Positions 9,742 to 63,144 of a DNA stretch of 64,000 bases are shown here, in pieces. The DNA is from Zanthoxylum bungeanum (lineage: Eukaryota; Streptophyta; Magnoliopsida; Sapindales; Rutaceae). The notes under the pieces were generated by a model. The model saw only the letters and a list, made by a program, of their open reading frames with translations, ran no database searches and was not told the origin of the DNA. The DNA lies in NCBI GenBank assembly GCA_019454045.1, contig SKCR01006519.1:496001-560000 (forward strand), written 5' to 3'. A program made the position numbers and the translations under genes. Every line of letters begins with the position of its first letter. Position 1 is the stretch's first letter.

Positions 9742-9964
9742 ACTTGTGCAGTGTATGATAATGACAATCCTATCAAAGTTATGCATGCATTTTTACTTAC
9801 CTGGCTCACCAGCTGCTGCTTGACTTGACTGTTGCTTCGAACTGAGTTGATTTGGTGGTTAGGTGCTGGGACCTAAGGTTCATCCCTGTAAGATGCTGCG
9901 ATTTCTAGGAATCACTGCCGAACTGAACTAATATGAGGTGGTCGATTTCTGAACCGTTAATAAC

Positions 9965-20288: not shown

Positions 20289-20340
20289 AAAAAATATGAC
20301 AGTCAAGTTTTAAGGATGTTATAAAAAGACGATGTCAGTC

Positions 20341-20617
20341 AAGAAATATTCACAGTGACATCATGGGTAAACTTTAACATTCACTGAAAACCCATTGGAC
20401 TACTTAATGTTGACCATTTTTTGATTTTCTTTTTGTATTTCTTGGGTTCATTTCGAAACCGGTAAAATATATCATCCTAACTGCAAGAAAAGCTGATGAA
20501 TTAATTGATGAACTCTTAGCTTATGAACTAAAAGTCGACCCTATTCTTTCCAAGTTGAACTGGTCTTATAACGATCGTGGCAAGAAACGTATATTGGACT
20601 TGGATCTTAATCTGTAA
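20341..20617 (+). pseudogene. Decayed LOG (cytokinin phosphoribohydrolase) remnant in alpha
   Basis: Reading through breaks, the protein text follows the C-terminal 100 residues of the intact LOG ORF at 51268-51921: 'QEIF', 'SWVNFNIH', an in-frame TGA where the intact gene has Q135, 'KPIGLLNVD', a one-base frameshift, 'FVFLGFISKP' with about six residues deleted, then an open 52-codon run that includes 'ELIDELLAYE' and 'DRGKKRILDLDLNL' before TAA at 20615. The N-terminal half, with the PGGxGTxxE motif, is missing because LTR sequence abuts on the left. The UTR that follows matches the one downstream of the intact gene ('CTAACTAGGT', 'TCTTCTAAACTCT', 'GACAATGTCTCA'). Decayed and not functional. 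Confidence 0.85.
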
Positions 20618-36269: not shown

Positions 36270-36415
36270 CCCCCATCCTTGAGCGTAGCATGGAATAATT
36301 CCTTAGACCTCCGATATATCTTTATCTCTTGATTTGCCTCGAATAACTTTTTAGTGTTCGCATAATGCTCCAAGCATCTGGTACCTCTATGTACTGTCTC
36401 AGCAAATCTGGAACC
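36270..36415 (-). pseudogene. Copia-3 gag, upstream fragment
   Basis: Minus-strand 'IYRRSKELFHATLKDGG' lies just before the solo LTR; the text farther upstream reads 'LGALCEH' or 'AWSIMRT' depending on frame. This is the middle of copia gag. It is cut at 36416 by the beta LTR. Confidence 0.65.
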
Positions 36416-38340
36416 TGACCAGTGCATTCACACGTGTATAACGCAAACGCACATATCGTTCAAGTAGTATAAAAATATCGATCCCACGAGGACTTAATTC
36501 CTACTGTTGTTATTAATTATTGATACTATGTATTTACAGGTATCTAATTATAGGGAGAAGGGAATCGATTACTTTTGGCTGGTTGAATGTGGATTTGAGA
36601 ATTAAAATAAAAATATATTCAAAAGAAAATACTAAGGAAAATAAAAGAAAAGACTCAAGGATCTAGGGTTGTGACTCCACACAATATTATTAAAAAGATT
36701 AATTGATTCTCTTATATATGTGTAATAAATTAATTTGCTAACCTGGAACACGATGATATGCAAAAGCCTCTTCTGATGGTTAGACGCAATACCGAGTATA
36801 ACCCAATTGAACCATATGTCTACGTCAACCAAATTTCCTGGATTCATTAAGATCAAGTTCCAATTATGGTTACCCACGCCCGATAGGTATATTCCTATCC
36901 TGTAAGGAAATCTATTAACAAGTTATCTATACTTAAGGAAGATCGTGAGCTATTGAATCTAAGGCTGAAACCTAAAATCTCTTTTCCATGTTCATTTTAA
37001 GTTTACCACATCAATCTTATTGATGATCAGACAACAAGACGCATTAAACTTAAGACTCAATAAACAAACTAAAGAATTACCATAAAAAGAAAATCAATTA
37101 TTGAGTGTGGATATTGTGTTTCATCACTTCCATAGAATAAAAATAAAATACTAGGGGTTGGGGTATCCACTTTTACTATATCTAATTTAGAAATCTCCCT
37201 TATTATAATATAGAATTTATCAGTGATATTACCAACCGACTATAAAGGTGGTATCCTCATTAAGTCATATTTTAAGTAAGTCCGACCAGCCATAAAGGCG
37301 GTAGTATTATTTGTCTATAAACCAGCCATATAGGCGGTAATTATCTGTCACCTAAAGACCAACCATGTAGGCGGTGTTATTTTATGTCAAATAAATAAAA
37401 CCAGCCATTAAGGCGGTAATCCTTTTAATTTGAATTATAATTTCCATATTATATTTAAGGGAGATTAATCTAAACTAAAATAATAAAAGCTTCACCCTTC
37501 CCCAGCGGAAAATCCAACTACTGAACATAAAAGTAAATAAATAAAATGATGTAATAAAAACTAAAAATAAAAATACATAATTTAATTATTACAAATATTT
37601 TACAAAATAGATGCAATCCTATAAAATCAGGAAAAATTCCCAAGGAAAGCACACCAAATGAGTTGCAAATGAGCTCAATTTATAGGCAAAAATTGGGATT
37701 GCCGTCACGACGCTAAAGGTCTTGGCGTCGCGATGTCGAGACACGTTTTGGTCTACGCGCTTTGACCACGCGCATTTCGTCAGTGCAATCAGGTGATGAC
37801 ACGTGTCACGTGGTGAGACGGTGCAATGGGAAGCTGACACGTGGCACGCGGTGATTGGCGGATGTTTCGGTCCAATGAGAAGGTGACACGTGACAGAATA
37901 TGATTCACCGATGATTCGGTCCAATGAGAAGGCGACACGTGGCACGCGCTATGTATGGTCCAATAGGATTGCGACACGTGGCACTTTGGCACATTTTAGC
38001 AGATCTTCTATGATGATGACACATCTCACGGCGCACGTTAGCAAGATCCGGCGCACGTTAGCAAGTCAAATTTCTCAGATTCTGACACGTGTCCATGGCG
38101 CACGTTAGGAGGCTTTTGGTGCACATTAGACGTCGCGACACTGACTCGGCGTCGCGACGTCGAAAATTGCGAAAATGTTTTTTTTGTCTATTTTGGCCCC
38201 AAATTGCTTCTAATGCTTCCCAAATTTTATTTATCTGCAAAATAACAATAAAACACATCAAAACGTTCACAAAACTCAATAAAATATACAAAATATTAGG
38301 TTAAATGAGTGGGAAATAGTGATATAAATATCACTCATCA
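36416..38340 (-). mobile_element. Beta 3' LTR
   Basis: 1925 bases. The minus strand begins TGATGAGTGATATTTATATC and ends 'GAATGCACTGGTCA'. U3 (right part) has seven G-box-like ACACGTG(G/T)C sites (37790-38100), 'GGCGCACGTTAG' repeats and CGTCGCGACG palindromes; the minus-strand TATA 'GCCTATAAATT' lies near 37678-37687; the hairpin array lies at 37230-37430. Open frames such as 37619-37945 come from this GC-rich array. Confidence 0.75.
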
Positions 38341-38352: not shown

Positions 38353-39637
38353 GAACATTTTGCTAGTCCTCGAGCAAAACATAAAATAAAATAACACAAA
38401 ATTTAACTAAGCCACTTTCGTAGGGATCACAGTTGCATTTAGCGTATGCAACAAGCCTTTAAACCCCAGGTGTCTCTAGTGGACGAGTTGTAGTCTCGTG
38501 AGGGTTTACAGCAATGATACCCATAAACATTTTACAAAAGTAAAAAGGTAGTGAAACTAATGCACACAAAAATAAAAAGAATAGAGAAAAGAAATAAAAA
38601 CAACGTCCTTAGAGAATGTCTAGTATCAAAGTTAGAGGAACTTTCAAAATGCATATCCCAACTAAAATTCTTTCTTTTGAACAACATATCTAAATCAGAC
38701 TCAAAGTGTGTGTGTGAATAATTCTACAAACAGCTTCGACTCTAAGTTGTCAACTCTGTGATTTCATCTCAACTCTCAGTAGTTAATGGGTCAAACCAAT
38801 CTGAGTATCTAAAATTGTTCTGTCTACTACAATCAGCACATGTGAGGTATGTGATTTTTCTAATTTTTTTATTTATATACAATATCTTTCATCTATGTAA
38901 GGAGCTTTGGGCAGGTGGCTCCCAAACCAGTTGGCTATAGGACACCAGGTGTTAAGACACCCCTACAGACTTAATTATTCAGACCTCAGATATATATATT
39001 TTCCAAAATATTTGATCCATGTAGCGAGCTTTGGGCCAGTGACTCCCAAACTAGTTGGTTTTAGGGCACTAGGTGTTAAAACACCCCCACAGACTTAATA
39101 ACTCGGATCTCAGATGTTTTTTTACCTTACATCATAAATAATTGTAGACGGAAATAGAAACTCAGACAAACGGTCATTCATCAACCACCGATTATTTTAA
39201 CTAGTCACTTTGTTGATTCCTTATTATCTAACTGCTTACAAGACTATTTTAAAAGTGCGCACGAGTCTGACCTAGATAAGAAATTCAAATTATGGATAAA
39301 AGTGAAATTAGCATTCATCTTTTCCTAAAACTTTTAAGCTAAACAAACAATCAAATCATCTGACTTTTTTTTTTTGGGTTTTTTCGATTTAAAACTCACA
39401 CAATCACACGAAATACGAACGAAAAATGATGAAATAAAACACACGACATGCAGAAAAGAAAAATTTTAACGGAATTTTAAAAAAATTAAAAGCTAACAAC
39501 CCACACCCCCAAACCTAAATCTAGCATTATCCCCAATGCGTTAAAAACAAAATAAAAAGAATGGAACAATAGTACCTAAGTTTTTAATCATCAGCCTCCT
39601 CCTCATCGCTGTTGTCAGCTGGTGGGTCAGGGAACTC
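38353..39637 (-). other. Beta 3' UTR with hairpin doublet, no gene
   Basis: Non-coding. At 38895-39110 two about 120-bp units repeat, each with an inverted repeat GGTGTTTTAACACC or close variant and a second inverted repeat TTTGGG...CCCAAA with a 9-nt loop. Other blocks (38600-38860, 39150-39350) match the 3' UTR of Ogre-like element 1. Oligo-T tract at about 39366-39376. Confidence 0.6.
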
Positions 39638-40636
39638 TTAGACAGTAATGTGCAAATCTTGTGCCATTTGTTGTAGTGCATGGCCGATTGCTCTGTTATA
39701 CTGAAGCATATAATCCACACGAGATCCCAATCGATGAACTTCCTGAGATATGGTGCGAGGTCTTGATGATCTTTGTGGTGGTTGAGGCTGTTGCTGTGGT
39801 TGCTGAGCAGATATCGAGGAGGATGATCCAGCATGAGCTTGTCTCTCTGTTCAAAGTTGCTGGATAATGCGGGTTGTCCATGATGTCATGGGCTGCATCA
39901 TTTCTTCTCTTGGGTTAACAGGGACCATGGCCAATGTGCAAAGTGAGATAATTAAGTGGCAGTAATAAAGGTCAACCTGTGTTGAATTTGCAGCCCAAGC
40001 AATATTAGTCGCAATCAGCTCCCCCACATCAATGGAAAACCCCTCCATTAAACAGTACAGCAAAATCATCATTTCTTTTGTAACAAATGAGATATGGGTC
40101 CCAGGCAGCAACGATCTGGTAAGAAAGTGAAACCAAACTCGAGCTTCAGGTTTAAGAGACTTGGAACTCATCTTCATATATTCCCCGCTACTACTCATTT
40201 CCTACGTAGCATTGGGAATACACAGTGTCTTTCTTAGGTGAGAAATGTTGATCTCATTCCTTATCGCAAAGTACTCATCAGCTTCCATCTCTGGTATCCC
40301 ATAAAACCTATTAATGTTTATGGCATCAAATGTTACTTGTTTTCCCCTAACCATCACTTCATATGCATGATGTTGTGAAGCATTTGCATAAAACTCCCGT
40401 ACTATAGAAATGCATGTAGGGCGGGGTTGCTGGCAAAGCTTTTGCGAGTGTCTGATAGTGATAATCTTGTCGATCTCTGGGAATAGCCCGAGGTTTATTT
40501 CAAAACCCCTCTCCATAATTGCAACCTTACTCCTCATTCCCTTATCATATCTTTGCTCAGAGACTACCGAAACAAATCTAGATCTGTCATAACTGGGTTC
40601 GGCAAATGTAGAGGCTCTGGATCTTTTCGGCGCCAT
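39638..40636 (-). pseudogene. Plant-transposon third ORF (putative plant transposon protein family)
   Basis: Start at 40636 (M-A-P-K-R-S-R). A single frame of 332 codons runs to TAA at 39640-39638 with two in-frame stops, TAG at 40204-40202 and TGA at 39853-39851, and no frameshift. Recognised stretches: 'FEINLGLFPEIDKII', 'RPTCISIVREFYANA', 'VRGKQVTFDAININRFYGIP', 'LKPEARVWFHFLTRSLLPGT', 'EGFSIDVGELIATNI', and a Q/P/S-rich linker followed by 'RLGSRVDYMLQYNRAIGHAL'. This matches, from memory, the family annotated in plants as 'putative plant transposon protein', a common non-pol ORF of gypsy elements. Function unknown. It sits between the missing pol and the 3' UTR, the slot that holds LOG in the LOG element. 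Confidence 0.75.
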
Positions 40637-41005
40637 CTTTCAAAAATTTCGACAGAATCTCCTCTAAAAGTTCAAGATTTCCCAAATTCAACCTAAATCT
40701 ATCACCACACAACATTTCAATCTTCGCCCCCGAATCTACGAAGTAACCAAATCCACACTCCAAAAATTCAATTAACAGTACCCAAATCAACCACAAATTT
40801 CAAAATTTTTCAGTTAATTTCCCCTTATATTTTACCGTTCAATATTTTGAAGAACCGGATCTGGAAGTGCTCGGTTGTGGCTTGGCTTGGTCACGGCTCG
40901 AACTGTTGTGGTTTCAATTTTAGCAGAGATTTGTGGTGCTAGAATGGTGGATCTCGATCGGTGATTTGGCTGTGTTGGCTGTGGTGGTTCGGCTTGGTGA
41001 ATACG
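40637..41005 (-). other. Upstream region of the beta third ORF, no gene
   Basis: About 370 bases; on the minus strand it is CA/GCC-rich ('CCACCACAGCCAACACAGCC') and leads to the ORF start. The 70-codon open frame at 40832-41044 crosses into an LTR and is not a gene. Confidence 0.4.
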
Positions 41006-46363: not shown

Positions 46364-46365
46364 AT

Positions 46366-46735
46366 TTTGTTTTTGATTAGTTCTCTCTCATTTGAACTCG
46401 AAATTGGGTGTGTAAGAACTCGTTGGAAAGCTAACACCCTAAACTTAATTTTAGGCACAAGTTTTGCATGATTTGGTTAAGATTTGAATTGCGAAATTAC
46501 ATTTAAAGTTCACGTATCTACAGAAAAACGTGAACAGAAAATTTCTTTGATGCCGGTTTTGTTTTGATTAGTTCTCTCTCATTTGAACTCGAAATTGGGT
46601 GTGTAAAAGCTCATTGGAAAGCTAACACCGTGAACTTAATTTTAGGCACAAGTTTTGCATGATTTGGTTAAGATTTGAATTGTGAAAATGCTTTTAAAGT
46701 TCACGCATCTGCAGAAAAATGTGAATAGTAAATTT
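46366..46735 (+). repeat. Tandem duplication (about 190 bp) in the copia-2 leader
   Basis: 'TTTTGATTAGTTCTCTCTCA' occurs at about 46370 and 46560, and both are followed by 'GAACTCGAAATTGGGTGTGT' and 'AGGCACAAGTTTTGCATGAT'. The two units differ by roughly a tenth. Non-coding; just downstream of the PBS. Confidence 0.8.
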
Positions 46736-47582
46736 ATTTGAATAAAATAAAATACAATATCATAATGAAATATTAATCAAAGTTATTTAATGCCTAAAAT
46801 AATTCCAAAATATTAAAACTCATATGCTTGATGATTCTATGTTTGATTAGAATTGGCGTGATTATTTTAGGGTGCAAGCATCTAGAGACTTTCTAAGAAA
46901 TAGAGAGTGTATTGCTTATCCCTTAGCTAAGTAATTATTCCGTGATGAACTTAGAGATTTATTACCTTTAAGGCTAATAAATATAAATCACTTGTTTATA
47001 ATAAAAAAACATTATAAAAGATACAAGTGGGGTGGGACCAAGGAGTTAATAAAACTTTCCAAACTAAAGTTAATTTAACCAAATGTATTACTAGAGTTCG
47101 ATAATGATTTGATGTCTTCCTTCACTCACTACCTTTTTATAGCCAAAAGGAAAAGCTGTGAAGACATCTAGATAATCATTTACTCAAGACTTACCTTAAA
47201 TCATATTTAAAGTGTTGGACTAATTTGGAGGATCTATTGTTTATTCCTGTCACCAAGGTGATAAGAGCCTAAGAGGTAAGGGTATTTAAGAGAGTTCGCT
47301 CCACCCACCCTCTGGGGAATTTTCAATGGAGGAATCCATTTGACAGTTATTCACTTAAACTTGCTAAAATCCTCAATAAAAATTCAAGTCTAAAATTTTC
47401 CTCCCATTGTAAAGTATAGACCCAAATGGCTTAAACCGTATTGGCAGGACTAAGTTTTACCAGACTGACCAATACCAATTTATCCCTAAATCGTACTATT
47501 GACAATGGTTTGACTTTTCTGAGTCATAAGACGCAACGACCCTTAGGCGTGGTCTTATAACTTAGTGGCAAAGATTGGGTGT
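46736..47582 (+). other. Copia-2 leader with an Ogre-leader-like module, no gene
   Basis: From about 47102 to 47350 the sequence follows the Ogre-like leader: 'GATGTCTTCCTTCACTCACT', 'AGGAAAAGCTGTGAAG', 'GGACTAATTTGGAGGATC', 'CCCTCTGGGGAATTTTC', 'AATCCATTTGACAGT'. The rest is A/T-rich leader. The last five bases, GGTGT, are the target duplication of the LOG element. Confidence 0.6.
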
Positions 47583-48097
47583 TGATGAGTGGTAAAACTA
47601 TCACTATTTCCCACTCATTTAACTTAATATTTTGTATAGTTTCTTGAGTTTTGTGAATATTTTGATGTGTTTTGTGTTATTTTGTAGATAAATAAAGTTT
47701 CAGGATATTCTGGAGGTGATTTGAAGCAAAACTGTGAAATTTGGCAAAAAGGGTATTTTGGTAATTTTGGACGTCCCGACACAAATTTTGGTAATTTTGG
47801 GCATCCCGACACCGAAATAAAGTTTCAAGACATTCTGGAGGTGATTTGGAGCAAAACTGTGAAATTTGGCAAAAAGGGTATTTTGGTAATTTTGGGCGTC
47901 CCGACACCGAGGGTATTTTGGTAATTGCACCACCATGCCACATGTCAAAGATTCAACGAGCCGTCTTTTTTAGCCACCATGCCACGTGTCGAAAATTCAG
48001 CGATCCAAAAAAAAATAATAAAAAAAAAATAAAAATCAGAAAAATAATAAAAAAATCAAAAATCAAAAAATAATAATAAAAAATTAGATTTTTTTGC

Positions 48098-48108
48098 CTA
48101 TAAATAGA
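48098..48108 (+). promoter_or_regulatory. TATA box of the LOG element 5' LTR
   Basis: 'CCTATAAATAG', followed about 70 bases later by 'CTTATAAATAAAAG'. The same box is present in the 3' LTR at 52527-52537 and, as TATAAAAGG, in the related LTR at 61715. Expected to start the element's RNA. Confidence 0.6.
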
Positions 48109-48350
48109 TTTCGAATTTTTAGTTTCAAATGTACCTCTTCCTCTGAAATCCTTATAAATAAAAGAGAGTTCTTCTTATTTGCTTCTTTTATTCAATTTTA
48201 TTTACGCTTTGTAGTAGTAATTCTATTTTTCCATGAGGGAGTAACCTCACCATGCTGAGGTAATAAGGTAATTCTTTTACTTTTACTATTTAGATTAATC
48301 TCCCTTAAAATATAATATATAAACTATTTAAAATCTGAATTAATAAAAGA

Positions 48351-48470
48351 TACCGCCATTCTAGGTCGGTAGGTTTAAGTTTATATTTCTGTTCCGCCTT
48401 ATGGTTAGTATATTTGAATTTGACTTAATCAGGATACCGCCATTCTGGACGGTTGGTTTAAAATATCACA
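48351..48470 (+). repeat. Tandem short hairpins in the LOG element 5' LTR
   Basis: Three units: ACCGCCATTCTAGGTCGGT, TTCCGCCTTATGGTTAG and ACCGCCATTCTGGACGGT. The outer units pair ACCG with CGGT and CC with GG. They lie downstream of the TATA box, so in the transcribed leader. The 3' LTR has the same array at 52780-52897, and related LTRs carry up to five units. Confidence 0.7.
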
Positions 48471-49359
48471 AGATTATATATTATATTATTGGGAGATATC
48501 TAAATAGTGAATAGTAGAAGTTAATTCCTTTTATCTTAGCATTTCTTTTTATTACTTTTCAGCAATTTCATTTTATGTCTTTTAAGTTTATATTAACTTT
48601 AGTTATGAGTTGTAACTAAGTTAAATATCTAGGGTTGTGATAAAATCTAATATCACCGATTTAAAAAGGGTTAGATTATAGTTTGGGTAATTAAAGAATT
48701 ATTTGTTGAGTCATAATCTTAATGCCTTTTTATTAACTGATCACTAATAAAATTGATTAGATAAAACTTAAAATGAACTAGACATAGAGATTTTAAGTTT
48801 AAAGACCTTATACTCAACAACCCACGATCTTCTTTAAGGATAGATTAACCTTTAATAGATTTCCTTACAGGATAGACATATACCTGTCGGGCGGGGGTAA
48901 TCAATAATTGGAATTCAATCTTAATGAATCTAGGTAATTTAATTGACATAGACATATGGTTCAATTTGATTATTCTAGGTATTTGTAAATGACCATCGGA
49001 AGAGGCTTTTACATAATTTAGTGTTCCAGATTAATAATTCAATATTTTACCTAACTATGATATAATCACTTCATCTTTTAAAAGATATTAGAAAGATTCA
49101 CAACCCTAGATCTTTGAGTCTTTTATTTTCCTTAGTATTTTCTTTTGTCTTTTTATTTATTTATTTATTTAGCAAATCTACAAAGCAGATCATTTCAAGC
49201 AATCAATCACTTCTCCCTCAATTAGATATTTGTAAATAAATAGATTCAACAATTAATAACAACAGTAGGAATTAAGTCCTCGTTGGATCAATATTTTTAT
49301 ACTACTTGAACGATACGTGCGCTTGCGTTATACGTGTGTGTTTACGCCGGTCAAGTTTT

Positions 49360-49377
49360 TGGCGCCGTTGCTGGGGA
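49360..49377 (+). other. Primer binding site of the LOG element (tRNA-Asp)
   Basis: TGGCGCCGTTGCTGGGGA matches, from memory, the complement of the 3' end of plant tRNA-Asp with one difference (T for C). It lies 6 bases after the LTR end, as usual in Athila/Tat elements. It appears functional. Confidence 0.85.
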
Positions 49378-49491
49378 CTTATTTTTCTTGAGTTATTAAT
49401 TTTGAAGCTATCTAATTTACTTGTATCTAATTTTCTTTGTTTTTTATCTGCAATTTTTATTTCTTTCTTTTGTTATCAGGTGATTAAAAAA

Positions 49492-50733
49492 ATGGAACAT
49501 TTTGAAACATTACGAGCTTTACTAGAAAAAGATACATCCCAAATCCAGGAGCAACAGTCTAGTTTTCAGAGGCATGTTGTCCAGCCTAACAACTATCACT
49601 GGAAGCCAGAACCAAACAATACTACATTTGCTCATCAGAATGAAATGGGAAGATGTGTAATTTGTGATGGTAACCACCCCAGCGATCAATGTATTTATCT
49701 TTCAGAGTGGCAGAATTATTGGAATCATTCAAGGTACGTAGAATCATCACATTTTCCATCTTATCCACCATCCATTTACGATCTTCATCAAGAACCAGAT
49801 CCATCAGAGGAAGATCAGTTGATTCACATGCTCAAAAATTTGTTCGAGGAACGGTAAGCTCAATTTAATGTAAAAATTCAGAGTCAAGCGGCGTCTATAC
49901 AGAGGATGACAGATCAAGTTAGACAACTAACAGACAACCTGAATCACATATCTCACGGAGCAAATTCAAATAATATTGAAGAAGCCTTCGAATATCCTGA
50001 GATTCATCATGACATCATAACAGAGGACGAGGCTGAGCAGTATCAAGAATCAGAGGTATCAGTTCAGAAGTCTGCACCAACCAAGTCTCAATTTGACTTT
50101 TATTATTCTGACTCTGACGAGGATGAAGAAACTGAGCTTTTTGTACAAACTGCACCAACAAGGAAGGATGAAACTTTCCATCCTCAGAATGAAGATCTTG
50201 GAGCATGCTTTGCTACGATGTTTGAAGAAGATCTTCCTAAACCATCCATTCCAGTCATATCAGAGGATGAAGACCTAAAATCTGACATTTCTTTTCATCC
50301 TCAGGTTGACAATTTTGAAAAATGTATTTCACAGATGACAGATGAAGAGCTGAATACATAGATCCTAAAATTCATCTGTGAAGAAAAGGTGGAGCAAGAA
50401 GCAGAGCAAATGGAGGAGCAAATGTCTGACCAAATTGAAAATCCAGAGCATTCAGGAGAAACATCGCTGTATCGGGGAGTACAAATCAGAGATATCACCA
50501 AGAAGCTTGACAGAATGGAACTTCCATTCCAAGTCAAGCACCATACAAGACCTCCTGATTTTCTTTCTTTCTTTTCAGGAATCACTGGAGCAACAAAGAT
50601 TAAAAAGGTGGCACAAGCACTGAATGAGACAAAACTCTTTTTGCCACTTTACCGTTGGAAGAGACCCTTCAAAAGCAACGCTCACGGGATTGTCTTTAAT
50701 AGGACATCCAAAACGACGTTGAAACCTCCTTGA
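49492..50733 (+). pseudogene. Gag-like ORF of the LOG element, two in-frame stops
   Basis: One continuous frame of 413 codons from ATG 49492 (M-E-H-F-E-T-L) to TGA at 50731, broken only by TAA at 49855 and TAG at 50359; both could come from C to T changes. An N-terminal coiled-coil-like stretch (residues 1-30) is followed by a CX2CX3HX4C zinc knuckle (C55, C58, H62, C67; 'CVICDGNHPSDQC'), as in Athila-type gag. The middle is very acidic (many E/D, with 'YYSDSDEDEE'), and the C-terminal part ('DITKKLDRMELPFQ', 'PDFLSFFSGITGATKIKKVA') was not recognised. It may bind element RNA; the capsid core is not evident. It lies directly upstream of the block that normally follows pol, so it seems to replace gag and pol together. 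Confidence 0.65.
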
Positions 50734-50734
50734 C

Positions 50735-51267
50735 AGATAGATTTCAGTCACGTCTGGCTGAAGACGAAAAATTTAGCGCTAGCAGGGAGGCAACCCATGC
50801 AATTTGTTGTAATTTTTGTTTACATATTTTTTGTATACATGTTATAGAATTTTTAATTTTGTGTGTTGTTTTGTAGGGAAAAGCACAAACGGAGCATTTT
50901 AAAACAGAAGGAATGGTGTTTGGCAATCATAAAGATGAGAACTAATTCATTAGCAATGGCTGAGTAAGGAATGAAATCTTGAGACACATCCTAATGGATT
51001 TATATATCAAACGAGTGGTGTATTGCGTACGTAATTCTGTTGCCTTAATTATTGCTTTGATTCGCTTTTCAGTTGTAATTATCTTTATTTTCGTAGACAG
51101 GATCTAGACTTTTTGACCTTTCACGATTTCTTTTGTTTTGTTTAGCTAACAAGCTTCCTTTGGAAGATACTAATGCTATTATTACTCACCCATTTTCAGG
51201 TACTATAAATTTAGCCCGTCATTGCACTTTTGAAGGCATCCAGAGTTGAGAAAGAAATACATAAAAA
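50735..51267 (+). other. Inter-ORF region of the LOG element
   Basis: Starts with 'CACGTCTGGCTGAAGACG' and 'GGGAGGCAACCCATGCAATT', a conserved block found after the pol stop in plant Athila/Tat elements. Then T-rich sequence with possible splice acceptors 'TTGTTTTGTAG' (about 50877) and 'CACCCATTTTCAG' (about 51199). A spliced subgenomic RNA for the downstream gene, as suggested for envelope-like ORFs, is possible but unproven. No other gene. Confidence 0.5.
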
Positions 51268-51921
51268 ATGGAAGCCACTTCAAGAAGACGAGTTGAGAAC
51301 ATTTGTGTGTTTTGTGGTAGTACTATTGGTACTAAACCACAATACATAGAGGCAGCAAAGGAATTGAGTCGAGTCTTAGCTGCAAGGAATATGCACTTAA
51401 TATATGGCGGAGGAAATCTTGGACTTATGGGGATCGTTTCAAATGCTGTACAGGAAGGAGGCAGTCACGTTTTGGGAATCATCCCAAAACCCTTGGCAGA
51501 AGCGAATCTTATTGGATCATCAAACGGAGAGGAACTGATCGTGTCAGGTATGTCTGAACGACTAGTAGAAATGATTAACCGTTCTGATGCTTTTATTGCT
51601 TTGCCAGGTGGCTTGGGTACATTGGAGGAAATTTTTATAGTTCTATCTTGGGCGAACTTGAACATACATCAGAAACCAATTGGGCTGCTTAACGTTGATG
51701 GATTTTATGATTTTCTTTGTGTGTTTCTTGATGATGCCCGGAGAAATGGGTTCGTGTCAAAACCTATGAAAGAACTCTTTTTTACTGTCAGGTCTGCTCC
51801 GGATCTAATAGACCAATTTTTAGCCTATGAACCACAAGTTGATCCTAACCTTTCAAAGATAAAATGGTCCGATGATGATCGTGGTAAGAAGCGTCGAATA
51901 AATCTGGACCTTAACCTTTAA
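51268..51921 (+). CDS. LOG: LOG-type cytokinin riboside 5'-monophosphate phosphoribohydrolase carried by a retrotransposon
   Basis: 217 codons, no intron, ATG in a good context (A at -3, G at +4). LOG enzymes cleave cytokinin riboside 5'-monophosphates to the free active base and ribose 5-phosphate in cytosol and nucleus. Visible: N-terminal Rossmann start 'ICVFCGSTIG' (12-21), 'YGGGNLGLMG' (46-55), 'SERLVEM' (96-102) keeping the conserved R98, the signature PGGLGTLEE (113-121), 'KPIGLLNVDGFYDFL' (136-150). Up to about residue 190 the length and order fit plant LOG. The H and K that flank R98 in plant enzymes are S and L here, so activity is not certain. The tail (201-217) is unusual: acidic, then 'GKKRR', then 'LDLNL', a match to the EAR repression motif LxLxL. 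The gene lies between a gag-like ORF and the 3' LTR of a young element. Expression would depend on the LTR promoter. Confidence 0.9.
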   Translation: MEATSRRRVENICVFCGSTIGTKPQYIEAAKELSRVLAARNMHLIYGGGNLGLMGIVSNAVQEGGSHVLGIIPKPLAEANLIGSSNGEELIVSGMSERLVEMINRSDAFIALPGGLGTLEEIFIVLSWANLNIHQKPIGLLNVDGFYDFLCVFLDDARRNGFVSKPMKELFFTVRSAPDLIDQFLAYEPQVDPNLSKIKWSDDDRGKKRRINLDLNL

Positions 51922-52230
51922 TTTGCTTGTAGTAATTCAGCTAACTAGGTACTATCTTCTAAACTCTTCTTCTACTGTTTAAAGACATTGGGGACAATGT
52001 CTCATTTAGATTTGGGGGTGAGGAATAGTTAATAGTATTTTGTTTATAGTTTGTGTTTTTATTTTTAGTCCAAAATTTTTCGAAAAATACAAAAAAATTA
52101 AAAAATTTTCAAAAATTACAAAAATATTTTGCATTTTTATCAAAGGCATATTTAAAGCTAGGTGATGGTTTGGTGTCTTCCTTCACTCACTACCTTTCTA
52201 TAAGGAAAAGCTGTGAGGCACCTAGATAAT
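51922..52230 (+). other. 3' UTR of the LOG element with a foreign leader module
   Basis: Has 'CTAACTAGGTACTATCTTCT' and 'GACATTGGGGACAATGTCTC', then 'TTTGGGGGTGAGG' (purine tract, about 52012-52024), all matching alpha's UTR after its decayed LOG. From about 52140 to 52230 the sequence ('TCAAAGGCAT', 'GGTTTGGTGTCTTCC', 'GGAAAAGCTGTGAGGCACC') is the Ogre-like leader module, joined directly to LTR sequence at 52231. Confidence 0.65.
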
Positions 52231-53782
52231 CATCCCGACACCGAAATAAAGTTTCAAGACATTCTGGAGGTGATTTGGAGCAAAACTGTGAAATTTGGCA
52301 AAAAGGGTATTTTGGTAATTTTGGGCGTCCCGACACCGAGGGTATTTTGGTAATTGCACCACCATGCCACATGTCAAAGATTCAATGAGCCGTCTTTTTT
52401 AGCCACCATGCCACGTGTCAAAAATTCAGCGATCCAAAAAAAAATAATAATAAAAAAATAAAAATCAGAAAAATAATAAAAAAATAAAAAATCAAAAAAT
52501 AATAATAAAAAATTAGATTTTTTTGCCTATAAATAGATTTCGAATTTTTAGTTTCAAATGTACCTCTTCCTCTGAAATCCTTATAAATAAAAGAGAGTTC
52601 TTCTTATTTGCTTCTTTTATTCAGTTTTATTTACGCTTTGTAGTAGTAATTCTATTTTTCCATGAGGGAGTAACCTCACCATGCTGCGGTAATAAGATAA
52701 TTCTTTTACTTTTACTATTTAGATTAACCTCCTTTAAAATATAATATATAAACTATTTAAAATCTGAATTAATAAAAGATACCGCCATTCTAGGTCGGTT
52801 GGTTTAAGTTTATATTTCTGTTCCGCCTTATGGCTGATATATTTGAATTTGACTTAATCAGGATACCGCCATTCCGGACGGTTGGTTTAAAATATCACAA
52901 GATTATATATTATATTATTGGGAGATATCTAAATAGTGAATAGTAGAAGTTAATTCCTTTTACCTTAGCATTTCTTTTTATTACTTTTCAGCAATTTCAT
53001 TTTATGTCTTTTAAGTTTATATTAACTTTAGTTATGAGTTGTAACTAAGTTAAATATCTAGGGTTGTGATAAAATCTAATATCACCGATTTAAAAAGGGT
53101 TAGATTATAGTTTGGGTAATTAAAGAATTATTTGTTGAGTCATAACCTTAATGCCTTTTTATTAACTGATCACTAATAAAATTGATTAGATAAAACTTAA
53201 AATGAACTAGACATAGAGATTTTAAGTTTAAAGACCTTATACTCAACAACCCACGATCTTCTTTAAGGATAGATAAACCTTTAATAGATTTCCTTACAGG
53301 ATAGACATATACCTGTTGGGCGGGGGTAATCAATAATTGGAATTCAATCTTAATGAATCTAGGTAATTTAATTGACATAGACATATGATTCAATTTGATT
53401 ATTCTAGGTATTTGTAAATGACCATCGGAAGAGGCTTTTACATAATTTAGTGTTCCAGATTAATAATTCAATATTTTACCTAACTATGATATAATCACTT
53501 CATCTTTTAAAAGATATTAGAAAGATTCACAACCCTAGATCTTTGAGTCTTTTATTTTCCTTAGTATTTTCTTTTGTCTTTTTATTTATTTATTTATTTA
53601 GCAAATCTACAAAGAAGATCATTTCAAGCAATCAATCACTTCTCCCTCAATTAGATATTTGTAAATAAATAGATTCAACAATTAATAACAACAGTAGGAA
53701 TTAAGTCCTCGTGGGATCGATATTTTTATACTACTTGAACGATACGTGCGCTTGCGTTATACGTGTGTGTTTACGCCGGTCA
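52231..53782 (+). mobile_element. LOG element 3' LTR, lacking its first 219 bases
   Basis: 1552 bases, aligned without net length change to 47802-49353, ending TTTACGCCGGTCA with the target duplication GGTGT next to it. Differences from the 5' copy are mostly C/T changes. The missing start includes the LTR terminus TGATGAGTGG and the first copy of the 123-bp duplication. Confidence 0.85.
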
Positions 53783-53787
53783 GGTGT

Positions 53788-54125
53788 CTACAAGGACTAG
53801 CATAAGCTATGCCATGTTTGATTGCCCAACCCAATGATCAAGGAATTGTGATTTGTATCATAAATTGGTTGGGAACCTACATAATTATCATATTTTATAA
53901 TGACCGGTCCTAGTCGGAGTTATGAAATATGATAATGGGATCCTTGCCCACAAGAAATCCATCATATTGGGGTTGATGCGATTTGCTTAAATTTTTAAAA
54001 TAATTGAGTGGGAGCAACTTCATAATATTAAAAGTCCATGTTATTATGAAACATTAATGAAAACATATTCCTAATTTTAACATTCTCTCTTAACAGGTGG
54101 GTTCAAATATTTCACAAACATTCAA
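53788..54125 (+). other. Copia-2 leader, distal part
   Basis: Continues the copia-2 leader after the LOG element. 'TTCTCTCTTAACAG' near 54085-54098 could be a splice acceptor just before the gag start. No gene. Confidence 0.4.
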
Positions 54126-54451
54126 ATGGCAAACAGAGTATCACTTCGTTCCATCCTTGATGAGCATAAGCTCAAAGGGGAAAACTACAATGACTGGTTT
54201 AGAAACCTTAAAATTGTCTTACGACAACAAAAGATTTTCTATGTTCTTGAAAGACCATTTCCCCCTGAACCTACAGAAGATGCTGACTAAAATACATTTG
54301 ATGCTTGGAAGAAACATTTCGATGATGATGAGCAAGCAGTTTGCATAATGCTTGGCTCTATGTCGGACGAACTTCAGAAAGCTCACGAAGATATGGATGC
54401 TCAAACTATCATCTTTCACTTGAAGGAGTTGTATGCAACTTCCGTTCATAC
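54126..54451 (+). pseudogene. Copia-2 gag, N-terminal part
   Basis: ATG at 54126, 'MANRVSLRSILDEHKLKGEN', 'NDWFRNLKIVLRQQKIFYVL', an in-frame TAA at 54288 where a CAA codon is plausible, then 'NTFDAWKKHFDDDEQAVCIM' and 'MDAQTIIFHLKELYATSVH'. This is standard copia gag. It is interrupted at 54452 by a minus-strand LTR and resumes at 56635 in a consistent frame. Confidence 0.8.
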
Positions 54452-56629
54452 TGACCGGCGTAAACACACACGTATAACGCAAGCGCACGTATCGTTCAAG
54501 TAGTATAAAAATATTGATCCCATGAGGACTTAATATCTAATCTATTAATTTTATGAGGTCAAATGATTACTAGTATCTAACAGGTTGATTGATTGATTTG
54601 AAATGGTGACGATTCTAAATTTAAAAGCAAGTAAATAAAATTGTCGAAAATAGGTTTTAAGAAAATTCAATATTAAAAACTATCTAGGGTTGTGATGTCT
54701 TCCAATATCATTTTAAAGATGAAGTGGTTATCTTAAAGTTGGGTAATATATTGATTTATTAAGCTGGAACACTAAATTATGTGTAATCCTCTGTCGATGG
54801 TCAGACACAAATACCCAGTTTAACCCAATTGAACCATATGTCTATGTCAACCAAATTATCTGGATTCATTAAGTTTAAGTTCCAATTATGGCTACCCCCG
54901 CCCGACAGGTATATTCCTATCCTTTAAGGAAATCTATTAAAGGGTTATCTATCCTCAAGGAAGATCGTGGGCTATTGAGTCTAAGGCTGAAACCTAAAAT
55001 CCCTATGTCTAGTTCATTTTAGATTTACCAGATCAATTTTATTAATGGCCAGTTAATGAAAAAACATTAAGTTTAAGACTCAATAAATAAATCTTTATAT
55101 TACCCAAGCTATAATCTAACCCCTTATAAAACGGTGATATTAAAAGTCATCACAACCCCAGATAACTAATTTAGTTACAACACATAACTAGGGCTAGTAA
55201 AAACTTGAAAATAAAAGACATAAAGTAAAAATGCGGTAAAGTAAATACTGAAAAGTAAATTACAATAAAATAAAATGTTAAGGTAAAAGGAATTACTTTT
55301 ACTACTACTAATTTAGATATCTCCCATAATATAATATATAAACTTGTGATAACATTACCAACTAGCCATATAGGCGGTATCCTGATTAAGTCAAATTAAG
55401 TCCAACCAGCCATTAAGGAGGTAGTATTTGTCCATAAACCAGCCATAAAGGCGGAACCAAAATAAAATTACCAACCGACCAATCTAGCGGTATCCTTTAT
55501 TAGTCAGGTTTAAACCAGATTAAAATGAATTACCAACCGACCAATCTGGCGGTATCCTTTTTAAGTCAATATTTTAAATAGTGAATATATTATATTTAAG
55601 GGAGATTAATCTAAATAGCAATAGTAAAAGAATTACCTTTCACCCTAGCTGGGGAGGTTACCTCCTCATGGTAAATAGTAAAAACTGTAAAAAGTAAAAA
55701 ACAAGTAAATTACTATTATTACAAAACGTAATTAAAATTAATTACAAAACTAAAAAAAACTAAAAAAATAAAAATTAAAAGAAAGTAGAGAGAGAAACTC
55801 TCTCTTTACATCAAAGAGATGAGAGTGAGTGGTACCTCTAAAACTGAAATCTCGAGCTCAATTTATAGGCCTCGGTAGGCTTCCAGCGTCGCAACGCCAG
55901 GGCCTTTAGCGTCGCTACGCCAGCTTTTGTCGACGTGGCACGCTCTGGTTCGTCGGTTTGCAGATTCTGGATAAGCTGATAAGGTGACACGTGGCGAGGT
56001 GGTTGGGCTTCAATTATTGTGACACGTGGCGGCTTCTGATTGGTCGATGAGATTCTTATCCGCCACGTGTCAGATAAGGATTAGATACTCAATTATTGAT
56101 GCTGACGTGGCGCTAACCTGGCGACACTGGGAAAGAGACTGTCGGCACCGTAGGATTGCGACACGTGGCACTTCCTGATTGGCCGATGATGACGTGGCGG
56201 TGAGGTGGTAGTTTGACTTGGTCAACCTGGTGATGTGGCTGATGACGCGACAATGACGTGGAGTGACACGTGGCACACGTGGCGATGATGACTGTCGGCA
56301 CCGTAGGATGCTGACACGTGGCACGACGCATGTTAGCAGATCGGCTGTGATGGTGACACATGGCACGGCGTACGTTAGCAAAGTCAAACTTTTCTCAGAT
56401 TCTGATTTGTGGACCCGGCGCACGTTAGGCGTCGCGACGCGGGAATTTACTAAAATGCCCTTTTTGTCCAATTTTCACTGTTTTGGCCCAAATCACCTCC
56501 AGAATGTCCTGAAACTTTATTTATCTACAAAATAACACAAAACACATCAAAATATTCACAAAACTCAAGAAACTATACAAAATATTAGGTAAAATGTGTG
56601 GGAAATAGTGATAGATTTACCACTCATCA
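54452..56629 (-). mobile_element. Solo gypsy LTR (LOG/beta family) in copia-2 gag
   Basis: 2178 bases. The minus strand begins TGATGAGTGGTAAATCTATC and ends TTTACGCCGGTCA. Flanks CATAC (54447-54451) and CATAT (56630-56634) are a 5-bp duplication with one change. It holds a hairpin array (55350-55565, five units), minus-strand TATA 'GCCTATAAAT' at 55861-55870, and a G-box/ABRE-like array (55980-56370). Open frames such as 56070-56471 fall inside that array. Confidence 0.85.
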
Positions 56630-56634
56630 CATAT

Positions 56635-57908
56635 CGTGAGATTCCAAGTGTCATGTGCCTTATTCCAAACAAGGTATAAGGAATGATCTATTAATGGACA
56701 TGTGCTTAAGATGATTGGCCACATTGAAAAATTGGCCAACCTCGGGTTCATCATGGATCATGAGATATTTCAGGATCTAATTCTTCAGTCATTACCAAAA
56801 GAATTCTCTAACTTTATTATGCACTTTCATCTATCTGATAAAGAAGCTACTTTAGCAGAATTGCACAATCTGATAAAGCAAGCTGAGAATGACTTGAAAC
56901 CGGAGTTTAAAACCTCCGTTATGCTTATGGGTACAGACCTAAAGCCACGAGGCCCAAAGAAAAATAAGGGCAAGGCCAAGGCTCCAGATCACCTAAAGCC
57001 CAATGGTAATGTGGAGAAGAAAAATGGAAAGGGGAAATGTTTCTTTTGTGGAAAGAATGGACATTGGAAGAAAGACTGCAGATCCTTGAAAGCCAAGGAA
57101 GTTAGGGAAGCTCAAGAGGCCAAGAAGCCCAATGCTTCAGGTATGTTGTATATGATTGAACTATATTCTCAAAACTCTGAACCTTCTACTTGGGTGCTTG
57201 ACACCGGTTGTGGGACTCACTTGTGTAACAATGTGCAGGGCCTGAGAAAAAGTAGAAGACTCCATCATGAGGAGGTTGACTTACACATGGGTAATAGAGC
57301 AAAACTGGCTGCATTATGCGTGGGGACTTATTCATTAGTTTTGCCGAATGGTTTAGTTTTAGACTTAGAAGATTGTGTTTATGTACATTCTCTAGTAAAG
57401 AACATCATTTCAATTTCTTCATTATGTAATAAAGGCTTTTCATGCCTAATAATTTGTAATGAATGTTCTATTTATTTCAATGAAATAAAATATGGAGATG
57501 GTATTTTGAATAATGGTATCTATGTCTTACAAACTAACAAAGAATGTTCAACCTCTAATATATACAACGTTAACTCGAATAATCTCAATGAATCACTTCT
57601 ATGGCACAGTCGCTTAGGTCATATCAATGAAACAAGATTAACTAAGCTACATAAGGATGGGTATTTCAAACCCTTCAAATATGAACCTTATGGAACTTGT
57701 GAATCCTGTTTACTTGGTAAAATGACCAAATTACCTTTCAAAGGTAAATGACAGCGTGCAGCGGAGACATTAGACCTCATACACTCTGATGTATGCGGAC
57801 CAATGTCAGTCACCGCTAAAGGTGGATTCTCATACTTCATTACCTTTATCGATGATCATGCGTGATATGGGTATGTGTACCTTATGCGGTACAAATCTGA
57901 AACCTTTG
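56635..57908 (+). pseudogene. Copia-2 gag C-terminus, protease, GAG-pre-integrase, integrase start
   Basis: After two early in-frame stops a 349-codon open frame (56702-57751) contains 'HIEKLANLGFIMDHEIFQDL', the zinc knuckle 'CFFCGKNGHWKKDC' (57038), the aspartic protease site 'WVLDTGCGTHLCN' (about 57190), 'LEDCVYVHSLVKNIISIS', and GAG-pre-integrase 'WHSRLGHINETRLTKLHKDG' with 'CESCLLGKMTKLPF'. A TGA at 57749 is followed by integrase '[20 protein letters not shown]' (first catalytic D) with another TGA. It stops at 57908 where Ogre-like element 2 inserts. It is the best-preserved copia pol part in the window. Confidence 0.85.
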
Positions 57909-60748: not shown

Positions 60749-61057
60749 TAGAGAATCGGCCCCGAAATAATGCCTTGTAATGTATAGATTTATGCTTTAA
60801 TTAACCGTGTCTACAAATGTGTGAAATGAGGGTTGTAATCAAAGGCATTTTGAGGCTAGGTAATGGTTTGGTGTCTTCCTTCACTCACTACCTTTCTAGA
60901 AGGAAAAGCTGTGAAGGCACCTAGATAGCCATCTACTCGTAGCCTATTGTGATGGACTAATTTGGAGGGCTCGTTGTTTATTCCTGACACCAAGCGATAA
61001 GAGCCTAAGAGGCTTGGGTATTTAAGTGAGCCTCGCTCCACCTTCCCTCTGGGGAAT
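60749..61057 (+). other. Ogre-like element 2 leader, proximal part
   Basis: Contains 'ATCAAAGGCATTTTGAGG', 'GGTTTGGTGTCTTCCTTCAC', 'GGACTAATTTGGAGGGCTC' and 'CCCTCTGGGGAAT', the same order as element 1 (minus strand, 12500-12720) and as 47102-47350. The solo LTR follows. No gene. Confidence 0.6.
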
Positions 61058-63144
61058 TGATGAGTGGTATTTATATCACTATTTCCCACTCATTTAACCT
61101 CATATTTTGTATAGTTTCTTGAGTCTTGTGAACGTTTTGATGTGTTTTGTTGTTATTTTACAGATAAATAAAGTTTGGAAAGCACTTGAGGCAATTTGGG
61201 GCAAAAACGGACAAAAATGCGTCAACAGGGATATTTTCGTCTTTTCCGAGTCGCGACGCTGAAGCCTTGCGCGGCGCGACGCCCAGGATGCGCCGAATAT
61301 GCTAACATGCGCCGTCAGCCACGTGTCAAAATCTGATAGGTTGGACTTGCTAACGTGCGCCGGATCTTGCTAACGTGCGCCGCCCTTGCTAACATGCGCC
61401 TCATGCCATGTGTCATCACCTCATTGGACCACCAAACCGCGTGCCACGTGTCGCCTCTCTCTTGGACCGAATAATCAACGAATCAGAGAATGCCACGTGT
61501 CACCATTTTATTAGATCGAATTTACACCCAATCACAAGATTACACGTGGCACGATTCTATTGGACCGCATCGCCAGTCAACCAGAGCGTGACACATGTCA
61601 CCAATTATTGTGCCGACAGCCGCGTGGTCAACATACGCGTGGACTCCATAAACTGTTTCCATCGTCGCGACGCTAGTGCATTTTCAGCGTCGCGACGCTG
61701 GGCCAAAATTTGCCTATAAAAGGAGGCCACCATTTCAGTTTTAGTTGCACATTCTCTCTCATTTTCTTTGATGTAAAATCGGGAGTTTCTCTCTCTAATC
61801 TCTTTTAATTTAAGTTTTGTAATTAATTACATTTTGTAATAGTAATTACTTTCTGTAATAGTAATAGTAATAGTAATTTATCTTGTTTTTACTGTTTCAG
61901 TTTTACTATTCAACCATGATGAGGTAACTTCTCCTTGCTAAGGTGAAAGGTAATTCTTTTTACTGTTACTATTTAGATTAATCTCCCTTAAATATAATAT
62001 ATTTACTATTTAAAATTTGACTTAATACGGATACCGCCATATTGGTCGGTTGGTTATTAAATTTAAATTGGTTTAAATATGACTAATCCAGGATACCGCC
62101 TATATGGCTGGTTGATAATTAAATTTTCTTACCGCCTATATGGCAGGTTCATGGACAAATCATACCGCCTTTATGGCTGGTCGGACTTAATTTGAATTAA
62201 TCAGGTTACCGCCTATATGGCTGGTTGGTAATATTATCACAAGTTTATATATTATTTTATGGGAGATATCTAAAATAGTAAATAGTAAAAGTAATTCCTT
62301 TTACCTTAGTATTTTATTTTATTTACTTTTCAGTATTTACTTTACCGCATTTACTATTTCGCATTTTTACTTTATGGTTTTTACTTTTAAGTTTTTACTA
62401 GCCCTAGCCATGTGTCATAACTAAGTTAGTTATCTAGGGTTGTGATGAATTTCAATATCACTGGTTTATAAGAGTTAGATTATAGTTTGGGTAATATAAA
62501 GATTTATTTATTGAGTCTTAATCTTAATGCTTTTTATTAACTGGCCATTAATAAAATTGATTAGGTAAACTTAAAATGAACTAGACATAGGGATTTTAAG
62601 TTTAAGACCTTAGACTCAATAGCCCACGATCTTCCTTGAGGATAGATAACTCTTTTAATAGATTTCCTTACAGGATAGGAATATACCTGTCGGGCGGGGG
62701 TAGCCTTAATTGGAACTTAATCTTAATGAATCTAGGTAATTTGGTTGACATAGACATATGGTTCAATTGGATTATACTAGGTATTTGTAATTGACCATCG
62801 GAAGAGGCTTTCACATAATATAGTGTTCTAGGTTAATAAATCAATGTATTACCCAACTATAGGATAACCACTTCATCTTTAAATAATATTGAAAAGATTC
62901 ACAACCCTAGATAATTTTTAATATTGAATTTTCTTAAAACTTACTTTCGAGCAATTTTATTTACTTGTCTTTAAATTTAGAATCGTCGTCATTTCAAATC
63001 AATCAAACAACCTATTAGATATTAGTAATCATTTGACCTCATAAAGTTAATAGCTTAGGTATTAAGTCCTCGTGGGATCGATATTTTTTATACTACTTGA
63101 ACGATACGTACGCTTGCGTTATACGTGTGTGTTTACGCCGGTCA
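61058..63144 (+). mobile_element. Solo gypsy LTR (LOG/beta family) in Ogre-like leader
   Basis: 2087 bases from TGATGAGTGGTATTTATATC to TTTACGCCGGTCA, with perfect 5-bp duplications GGAAT at 61053-61057 and 63145-63149. U3 has G-box-like sites, GCTAACGTGCGCC repeats and GCGTCGCGACGC palindromes (61250-61700); TATA 'TATAAAAGG' at 61715; hairpin array of five units at 62032-62235. The 103-codon open frame 61408-61719 is inside the U3 array. Confidence 0.9.
62032..62235 (+). repeat. Five tandem hairpins of type ACCGCC...GGCTGGT
   Basis: Units: ACCGCCATATTGGTCGGT, ACCGCCTATATGGCTGGT, ACCGCCTATATGGCAGGT, ACCGCCTTTATGGCTGGT, ACCGCCTATATGGCTGGT, spaced 30-60 bases. Each folds with a 4-6 bp stem around an A/T-rich loop. 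It lies about 320 bases after the TATA box. Confidence 0.75.

What the first reader, a model, noticed from the sequence alone, without database searches (positions are those of the whole stretch)
47583..53782. A young gypsy retrotransposon carries an intact cytokinin-activating LOG gene
Seen: an uninterrupted 217-codon LOG ORF with YGGGNLGLMG and PGGLGTLEE lies between two LTRs (exactly 1552 shared bases, about 20 differences by eye), with a perfect GGTGT target duplication. The element's gag-like ORF has two stops and it has no RT or integrase, yet LOG is open. Known: LOG enzymes release active cytokinins. Inference: the element captured a host hormone gene and spreads it, possibly gaining by altering cell division or the expression state of host tissue. 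I know of no described plant retroelement with this cargo, but could not search.
Basis: partly seen in the sequence, partly recalled or inferred. Interest (0 to 1): 0.93.

Follow-up and report, generated by a model that had tools for sequence, protein, structure and literature searches.

The report
Retrotransposon carrying an altered LOG enzyme
A plant jumping gene carries its own copy of a hormone-activating enzyme, a kind of cargo already mentioned in print, but this copy and most of its nearest relatives have changed the part of the pocket thought to recognise the hormone, so what it does for the element is an open and testable question.

Summary
In detail: an intact 217-codon LOG ORF (51268-51921) lies in an LTR element (47583-53782) with GGTGT duplications and 1552 bp of shared LTR with 22 differences. 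The element is non-autonomous: broken gag-like frame, no pol found, 3' LTR lacking 219 bp and the polypurine tract.

LOG is not a lone passenger: a decayed LOG of another sublineage lies at 20340-20617 before the same 3' motif, and a third element with the same LTR type has a Transposase_32 ORF in that slot. LOG in Gypsy elements is already in print (PMC9289625, citing Steinbauerova 2011).

New here: the window LOG belongs to a clade separate from the host LOG3/7/8 proteins sampled. Of the 120 nearest proteins listed, 110 have replaced Lys100 and Glu125 of the proposed prenyl site while keeping eight core sites at 96%. Over 305 proteins both are kept in 176, both lost in 126, Lys alone in 3, Glu alone in 0.

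So 'cytokinin-activating' is doubtful; a conserved accessory phosphoribohydrolase with a changed pocket is likelier. The open ORF of this young copy is no sign of selection (85% neutral survival). dN/dS and genome-wide copies could not be tested.

The parts
47578..47582 (.). target duplication GGTGT, left
47583..49353 (+). 5' LTR, complete (TGATGAGTG...GGTCA)
   Evidence: start shared with three other related LTRs in the window
49360..49377 (+). primer binding site TGGCGCCGTTGCTGGGGA, tRNA-Asp type (tRNA recalled, not tested)
49492..50733 (+). gag-like frame with CCHC-type knuckle (read by eye) and two internal stops (49855, 50359); no Pfam gag match
51268..51921 (+). LOG-family ORF, 217 aa, catalytic core kept, His97/Lys100/Glu125 changed to Ser/Leu/Ile
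51984..52021 (+). 3' non-coding motif GACATTGGGGACAATG...TTTGGGGGTG shared with the second LOG copy and the third element
52134..52233 (+). fragment of an unrelated repeat (X) in place of the UTR end, polypurine tract and LTR start; short microhomology at the junction
52231..53782 (+). 3' LTR lacking its first 219 bp
53783..53787 (.). target duplication GGTGT, right
20340..20617 (+). second, decayed LOG (residues 120-217; one stop, frame change, 18-nt gap), followed by the same 3' motif to about 20804
39541..40639 (-). third element: broken ORFs with Pfam Transposase_32 in the slot that LOG has in the other two, followed by a related 3' motif (39578-39459)
36414..38340 (-). related LTR of the third element, after about 1.1 kb of UTR and a polypurine-like tract
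61058..63144 (+). related solo LTR with GGAAT duplication, in repeat X
54451..56629 (-). related solo LTR; flanks ATATG/GTATG (4 of 5)

Best explanation
The element is a young, non-autonomous (pol-less) member of a plant LTR-retrotransposon family, probably of the Athila/Tat type, in which the 3' extra-ORF slot just upstream of the 3' non-coding motif holds a LOG-family gene in some members [shown: anatomy, second LOG copy, another ORF in the slot of a third element; lineage inferred]. The LOG descends from an old acquisition that gave a separate protein clade, not from a grab by this copy [supported by the trees; whether most clade members are element-borne is not shown]. In most of the clade members listed, the window's included, the enzyme keeps the phosphoribohydrolase core but has replaced the charged Lys100/Glu125 pair, and often His97, of the proposed N6-prenyl site [shown by alignment]. 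Inference: the protein is kept in circulating elements as an accessory nucleotide 5'-monophosphate phosphoribohydrolase whose substrate is no longer, or not mainly, cytokinin ribotides; the element moved in trans with the pol of a relative.
For: Element. Second LOG copy with LOG plus downstream 3' motif shared. Third element with Transposase_32 in the slot. Fold: pLDDT 85.9; best PDB match Arabidopsis LOG3 2a33, rmsd 1.1 A, 49% identity. Sites, 120 nearest proteins listed: Met96 kept in 115, Arg99 108, Thr119 115, Glu121 116, Glu122 116, Trp129 118, but Lys100 and Glu125 in 10 each and His97 in 26; Lys100 is replaced only by L, I, M or F. The 120 AtLOG3-like proteins, AtLOG8 and two bacterial LOGs keep all eight. 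Coupling over 305 proteins: both kept 176, both lost 126, Lys only 3, Glu only 0. Core of eight sites kept at 96% in the 110 non-Lys proteins, 98% in the 75 under 60% identity, against 52% in neutral simulation at 55% identity, where 1.5% of frames stay open. Trees: clade with the window 96/93 against host LOG3/7/8 at 98/91. LOG-bearing Gypsy consensuses in print.
Against: 12 of 120 relatives have Gln at catalytic Arg99. Without the pocket columns and seven rows, clade support falls from 96/93 to 89/93 and the non-Lys group from 98/86 to 86/59. M. marinum LOG differs at three prenyl-site positions and is still treated as a LOG (passages), and wheat LOGs differ in product without a clear residue cause (PMC11593424 passages), so pocket residues alone do not settle the substrate. 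No DNA of relatives, hence no dN/dS; genome-wide copies unknown (genome search did not complete). Most relatives come from short unnamed contigs, so linkage to elements is not shown for them. The coupled loss may be one event (one change on the tree).
Confidence: 0.58

Rival explanations
1. One reading: the element carries a working cytokinin-activating LOG and gains by raising active cytokinin, and so cell division or expression, in host cells.
For: Catalytic Arg99, Glu122 and PGGXGTXXE kept; LOG fold; some clade members (Xanthoceras P0066, P0109, P0118; P0035, P0041, P0046) keep the full canonical site.
Against: His97, Lys100 and Glu125 of the proposed prenyl site are changed in the window LOG, and Lys100 and Glu125 in 110 of the 120 nearest proteins.
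Confidence: 0.25
2. The clade is a host LOG subfamily, or repeated retrocopies of one, that elements picked up several times; the element linkage is occasional.
For: Most relatives are from unnamed contigs without context; several Populus members are annotated as genes called LOGL10.
Against: Two elements in one window carry LOGs that are only 58% identical over the shared part yet share the downstream element motif; Gypsy consensuses with this domain in print; a Xanthoceras model mixes LOG with a gag/protease-like piece.
Confidence: 0.15
3. Chance passenger: a decaying transduced gene of no use to the element.
For: The ORF would survive the LTR age neutrally in 85% of cases; the second copy in the window is decayed.
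Against: Core sites kept at 96-98% in relatives that are on average 52-58% identical, against about 52% under neutrality; recurrence in two elements.
Confidence: 0.08

Closest known systems
Gypsy consensuses with a YgdH/LOG domain in Citrus and Populus (PMC9289625; Steinbauerova et al. 2011)
   Same: LOG-family domain inside a plant Gypsy element. From recall only, the 2011 abstract names two Athila-like elements similar to LOGL4.
   Different: Those consensuses were found through their RT, so they belong to pol-bearing sequences; this copy has no pol. The section and passages read say nothing of active-site residues or of a pocket change.
Athila/Tat (OTA) Ty3/gypsy elements with 3' extra ORFs (PMC6317226)
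   Same: 5-bp duplication, long LTRs, non-Met-type primer site (tRNA identity recalled), sense extra ORF before the 3' LTR.
   Different: No RT or integrase left to place it. That survey counted extra ORFs of at least 250 codons, so a 217-codon LOG would not be counted.
Type-I LOG phosphoribohydrolases (AtLOG3 2a33, AtLOG8 1ydh, CgLOG 5its, PaLOG 5zbk)
   Same: Fold, PGGXGTXXE, catalytic Arg and Glu.
   Different: His97, Lys100 and Glu125 of the proposed prenyl site are Ser, Leu and Ile.
Phalaenopsis Gypsy elements with an AlkB-type RNA demethylase (PMC9289625)
   Same: An enzyme domain of cellular type held as an extra ORF in a Gypsy lineage.
   Different: Different enzyme; its activity was shown in vitro.

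Membership tests
LTR retrotransposon | paired TG...CA LTRs flanked by a target duplication | tested here: met
   22 differences in 1552 bp; GGTGT both sides
LTR retrotransposon | primer binding site after the 5' LTR | tested here: met
   18-nt site starting 7 nt after the LTR end; tRNA identity recalled, not tested
LTR retrotransposon | polypurine tract directly before the 3' LTR | tested here: not met
   missing together with the first 219 bp of the 3' LTR; seen by eye in the third element
Ty3/gypsy, Athila/Tat (OTA) | RT/RH/INT phylogeny | not testable with these tools
   no pol match in the element's scanned ORFs; in all 24 window ORFs scanned the only RT match was a copia RVT_2
Ty3/gypsy, Athila/Tat (OTA) | primer other than tRNA-Met; extra ORF downstream of the pol position | tested here: inconclusive
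   layout fits passages of PMC6317226; tRNA-Asp match recalled
Type-I LOG | Lysine_decarbox domain and LOG fold | tested here: met
Type-I LOG | PGGXGTXXE with catalytic Arg99 and Glu122 | tested here: met
   residues from PMC4979012 passages
Cytokinin-activating plant LOG | proposed prenyl site Met96, His97, Lys100, Glu125, Trp129 | tested here: not met
   M, S, L, I, W: two of five kept
Cytokinin-activating plant LOG | release of iP or tZ from their ribotides | not testable with these tools
   needs an enzyme assay
LOG-bearing Gypsy elements | LOG carried by several elements of one family | tested here: inconclusive
   two LOG copies in the window share the 3' motif; LTRs of the second copy not identified; genome-wide copies not tested

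The most novel reading that the evidence does not exclude
A Gypsy lineage took a host cytokinin-activating enzyme once, before the rosid orders sampled here parted (or spread it between them), and re-tooled its base pocket into a new nucleotide phosphoribohydrolase that works for the element, for example by changing a signalling or defence nucleotide or the nucleotide pool during reverse transcription. It would be a retroelement accessory enzyme with a substrate of its own.
Probability: 0.3. Interest if true: 0.85.

Novelty: new variant of a known kind. Interest (0 to 1): 0.58.

Why it matters
Extra ORFs of plant Gypsy elements mostly lack a known function. This one has a well-studied fold, known catalytic residues and simple assays, so the question whether an element re-tooled a captured host enzyme becomes directly testable. 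It also warns that automatic names such as LOGL10 in plant genomes can label proteins of this clade that may not activate cytokinins.

Tried and rejected
Rejected: (1) 'cargo not described before': PMC9289625 section 12 reports it. (2) An open ORF as proof of selection: neutral survival over the LTR age is 85%. (3) A 3' LTR starting right after the TTTGGGGGTG motif at about 52020: related LTRs and the third element show that the LTR starts with TGATGAG after a further UTR of about 1.1 kb, so this copy lost that stretch and 219 bp of LTR. (4) Repeat X as the element's own 3' end: the solo LTR at 61058 sits in X with a duplication, and an unoccupied relative of the site is at 12156-13090. (5) The seven Lys-bearing clade rows grouped with the 15 host LOG7 rows apart from the rest: rejected, AU p 2.5e-47; the whole clade joined with LOG7 is not rejected, p 0.205.

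Led nowhere: scan of viral contigs (no match) and of prokaryote genome contigs (32 pattern matches, none confirmed). Ten paper searches: of what I opened, only PMC9289625 reports LOG in retroelements. Steinbauerova 2011 is not held; its content is second-hand or recalled. PMC7264820 has no occurrence of 'LOG', 'lonely' or 'cytokinin' in its main text. PMC11963269 passages gave context only.
Full report
OBSERVATION. The window holds an ORF of 217 codons at 51268-51921 that scores 122 bits against Pfam Lysine_decarbox, cut-off 27. It lies between two LTRs. The 5' LTR is 47583-49353; the 3' LTR is 52231-53782 and lacks the first 219 bp. The 1552 bp in common differ at 22 positions, K2P 0.0143, about 0.55 million years at 1.3e-8 substitutions per site per year (a recalled rate; 1.1 at 6.5e-9). 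GGTGT stands on both sides. Three further related LTRs in the window begin with the same TGATGAGTG, which confirms the left end. A primer binding site follows the 5' LTR. A gag-like frame, 49492-50733, has two internal stops. The three internal ORFs scanned besides LOG gave no gag, RT or integrase match; two gave only matches below the cut-off to unrelated families.

WHAT IS BROKEN. Just before the 3' LTR, about 100 bp (52134-52233) match a different repeat, X (90% to 60833-60933), and the junction shows a few bases of microhomology (by eye). The third element with a related LTR (minus strand) still has about 1.1 kb of UTR and a polypurine-like tract before its LTR (by eye). So this copy lost that stretch and the LTR start, most simply by repair after insertion (inference).

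NOT A LONE PASSENGER. tblastn finds a second LOG remnant at 20340-20617: its longer piece is 76% identical to P0005 and 58% to the window LOG over 72 columns; the remnant has one stop, an 18-nt gap and a frame change. The DNA match runs on through its stop into the 3' motif (20343-20804 against 51628-52079, 67%; alignment). Its own LTRs were not identified. The third element has ORFs with Transposase_32 (PF20167, E 1e-14 and 1.1e-18) directly upstream of a related motif (69% over 123 columns). So the slot before that motif is filled by LOG in two elements and by another ORF in a third. In Xanthoceras the gene model P0007 has LOG pieces on both sides of a 34-column stretch that is 76% identical to the window ORF 17666-18343; I take it for a gag/protease region from a recalled pattern (no Pfam match).

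RELATIVES. The four best proteins are 81-85% identical and come from short unnamed contigs. Named members come from Xanthoceras, Populus, Reevesia and Diplodiscus and Acer: Sapindales, Malpighiales and Malvales (for Xanthoceras, Populus and Reevesia; the other two genera recalled). AtLOG3 as query returned host LOG1/3/4-type names; the Lys-bearing clade members as query also returned host LOG7 names. Each search lists only its best 120. In a first quick tree of 113 rows (99 of the 120, by length) the proteins form one group against 11 host rows, support 95. In a careful tree of 73 rows, chosen by hand from 309 aligned sequences, the clade with the window stands at 96/93 (bootstrap/SH-aLRT) against 22 host LOG3/7/8 rows, and the rows without Lys100 form one group at 98/86. 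With the three pocket columns and seven rows (mostly long-branched) left out, these values are 89/93 and 86/59, and Lys to non-Lys still needs one change. Joining the clade with LOG7 is not rejected (p 0.205), so a LOG7-like donor is possible; grouping its Lys-bearing rows with LOG7 apart from the rest is rejected. That the clade falls outside the host LOGs may be partly long-branch pull.

ACTIVE SITE. In CgLOG, Met96, Lys100 and Glu121 hold the adenine, Arg99 and Glu122 are the proposed catalytic pair, and Met96, His97, Lys100, Glu125 and Trp129 form a proposed prenyl site identical in AtLOG3, OsLOG and Claviceps LOG; alanine in 'these crucial residues' nearly abolished activity, S19A excepted (PMC4979012, passages; which residues were mutated singly I did not see). 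The window has M, S, R, L, E, E, I, W at 96, 97, 99, 100, 121, 122, 125, 129. Of the 120 nearest proteins 10 keep Lys100 and 10 keep Glu125. Replacements at 100 are L 68, I 27, M 14, F 1; at 125 H 53, T 23, Q 17, I 13 and four others. His97 is kept in 26. Arg99 is kept in 108 and Gln in 12, against universal activity. The position of CgLOG Ser19 is Thr in the window. The 120 proteins keep all eight, but they were picked for closeness to AtLOG3. Of the 65 proteins new, 44 keep all eight, both host LOG7 and clade members. Over the 305 database proteins Lys100 and Glu125 are both kept in 176, both lost in 126, Lys alone kept in 3, Glu alone in 0. Shared descent explains much of this; it is not 126 events.

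CONSTRAINT. A neutral copy of this ORF would have no substitution stop in 85% of simulations after the LTR age (indels not modelled), so the open frame here says little. But the 110 relatives without Lys100 (mean identity 58%) keep eight core sites at 96%, and the 75 of them under 60% identity (mean 52%) at 98%. Neutral simulation gives 52% retention at 55% identity, with 1.5% of frames open. Database proteins are picked for being open, so the retention of the core, not the openness, is the argument. This is not dN/dS, since no DNA of relatives was at hand, and related sequences are not independent.

FOLD. AlphaFold2 with 42 sequences: pLDDT 85.9, pTM 0.83. Best PDB match AtLOG3 2a33 (E 1.5e-20, TM 0.94 by target, rmsd 1.1, 49% identity), then AtLOG8, PaLOG with and without AMP, CgLOG.

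KNOWN OR NEW. PMC9289625 (abstract, section 12 and passages seen) screened 121 angiosperm genomes and reports the YgdH domain in Gypsy consensuses of two Citrus species and, with its copy filter off, Populus trichocarpa, citing Steinbauerova 2011. That paper is not held; from recall its abstract names two Athila-like elements similar to LOGL4. PMC6317226 (passages) counted extra ORFs of at least 250 codons, so a 217-codon LOG would not be counted. PMC11593424 (abstract and passages) has no word beginning with 'retro' or 'transpos' in its main text and finds wheat LOGs that differ in product (iP or iPR) without a clear residue cause, a warning against reading substrate from residues alone. In ten searches I met no report of the pocket change in element LOGs.

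HOW IT MOST LIKELY WORKS. Shown: an LTR element that inserted recently, without pol in the parts scanned, carrying an intact LOG-family ORF whose catalytic core is like that of active enzymes. Inferred: it moved in trans with a relative's pol; LOG is read from a 3' or spliced RNA; the enzyme cleaves a nucleotide monophosphate other than, or besides, cytokinin ribotides. Which one, and what the element gains, is open.

Noticed in passing
window 61058-63144: Solo LTR related to those of the LOG element, with a perfect GGAAT duplication, in repeat X; an unoccupied relative of the site is at 12156-13090 (minus), so the empty site is visible in the same window.
   Followed up: yes
window 54100-57751: Copia-type sequence (ORF 56687-57751 with GAG-pre-integrase and zinc-knuckle matches) that seems interrupted by a related solo LTR at 54451-56629; by eye the LOG element may lie in the same older copia sequence.
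   Followed up: partly
window 17300-18343: Two adjoining ORFs with a gag/protease-like stretch that also occurs inside a Xanthoceras LOG gene model, P0007; about 2 kb upstream of the decayed LOG.
   Followed up: partly
window 51187-51199 and 49460-49479: Pyrimidine-rich stretches ending in CAG stand shortly before the LOG ATG and the gag-like ATG; they look like splice acceptors (by eye) and might serve a subgenomic LOG RNA.
   Followed up: no
window 9952-10605 and 46365-46741: Local tandem repeats, copies about 80-91% alike in the self-comparison.
   Followed up: no
window 18430-19620: A motif like GGGGACRRYGATACGTAACGCCC recurs many times between the gag-like ORFs and the decayed LOG (by eye).
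   Followed up: no
proteins P0008, P0010, P0021 and others: 12 of 120 relatives have Gln for the catalytic Arg99; all 12 lack Lys100 and 11 lack His97 (state strings), perhaps sublineages that lost or changed catalysis.
   Followed up: partly
public annotations: Populus proteins named LOGL10 (P0042, P0048, P0057) fall in the same clade as the window LOG, and P0042 lacks the canonical prenyl-site residues, so the name may mislead.
   Followed up: partly
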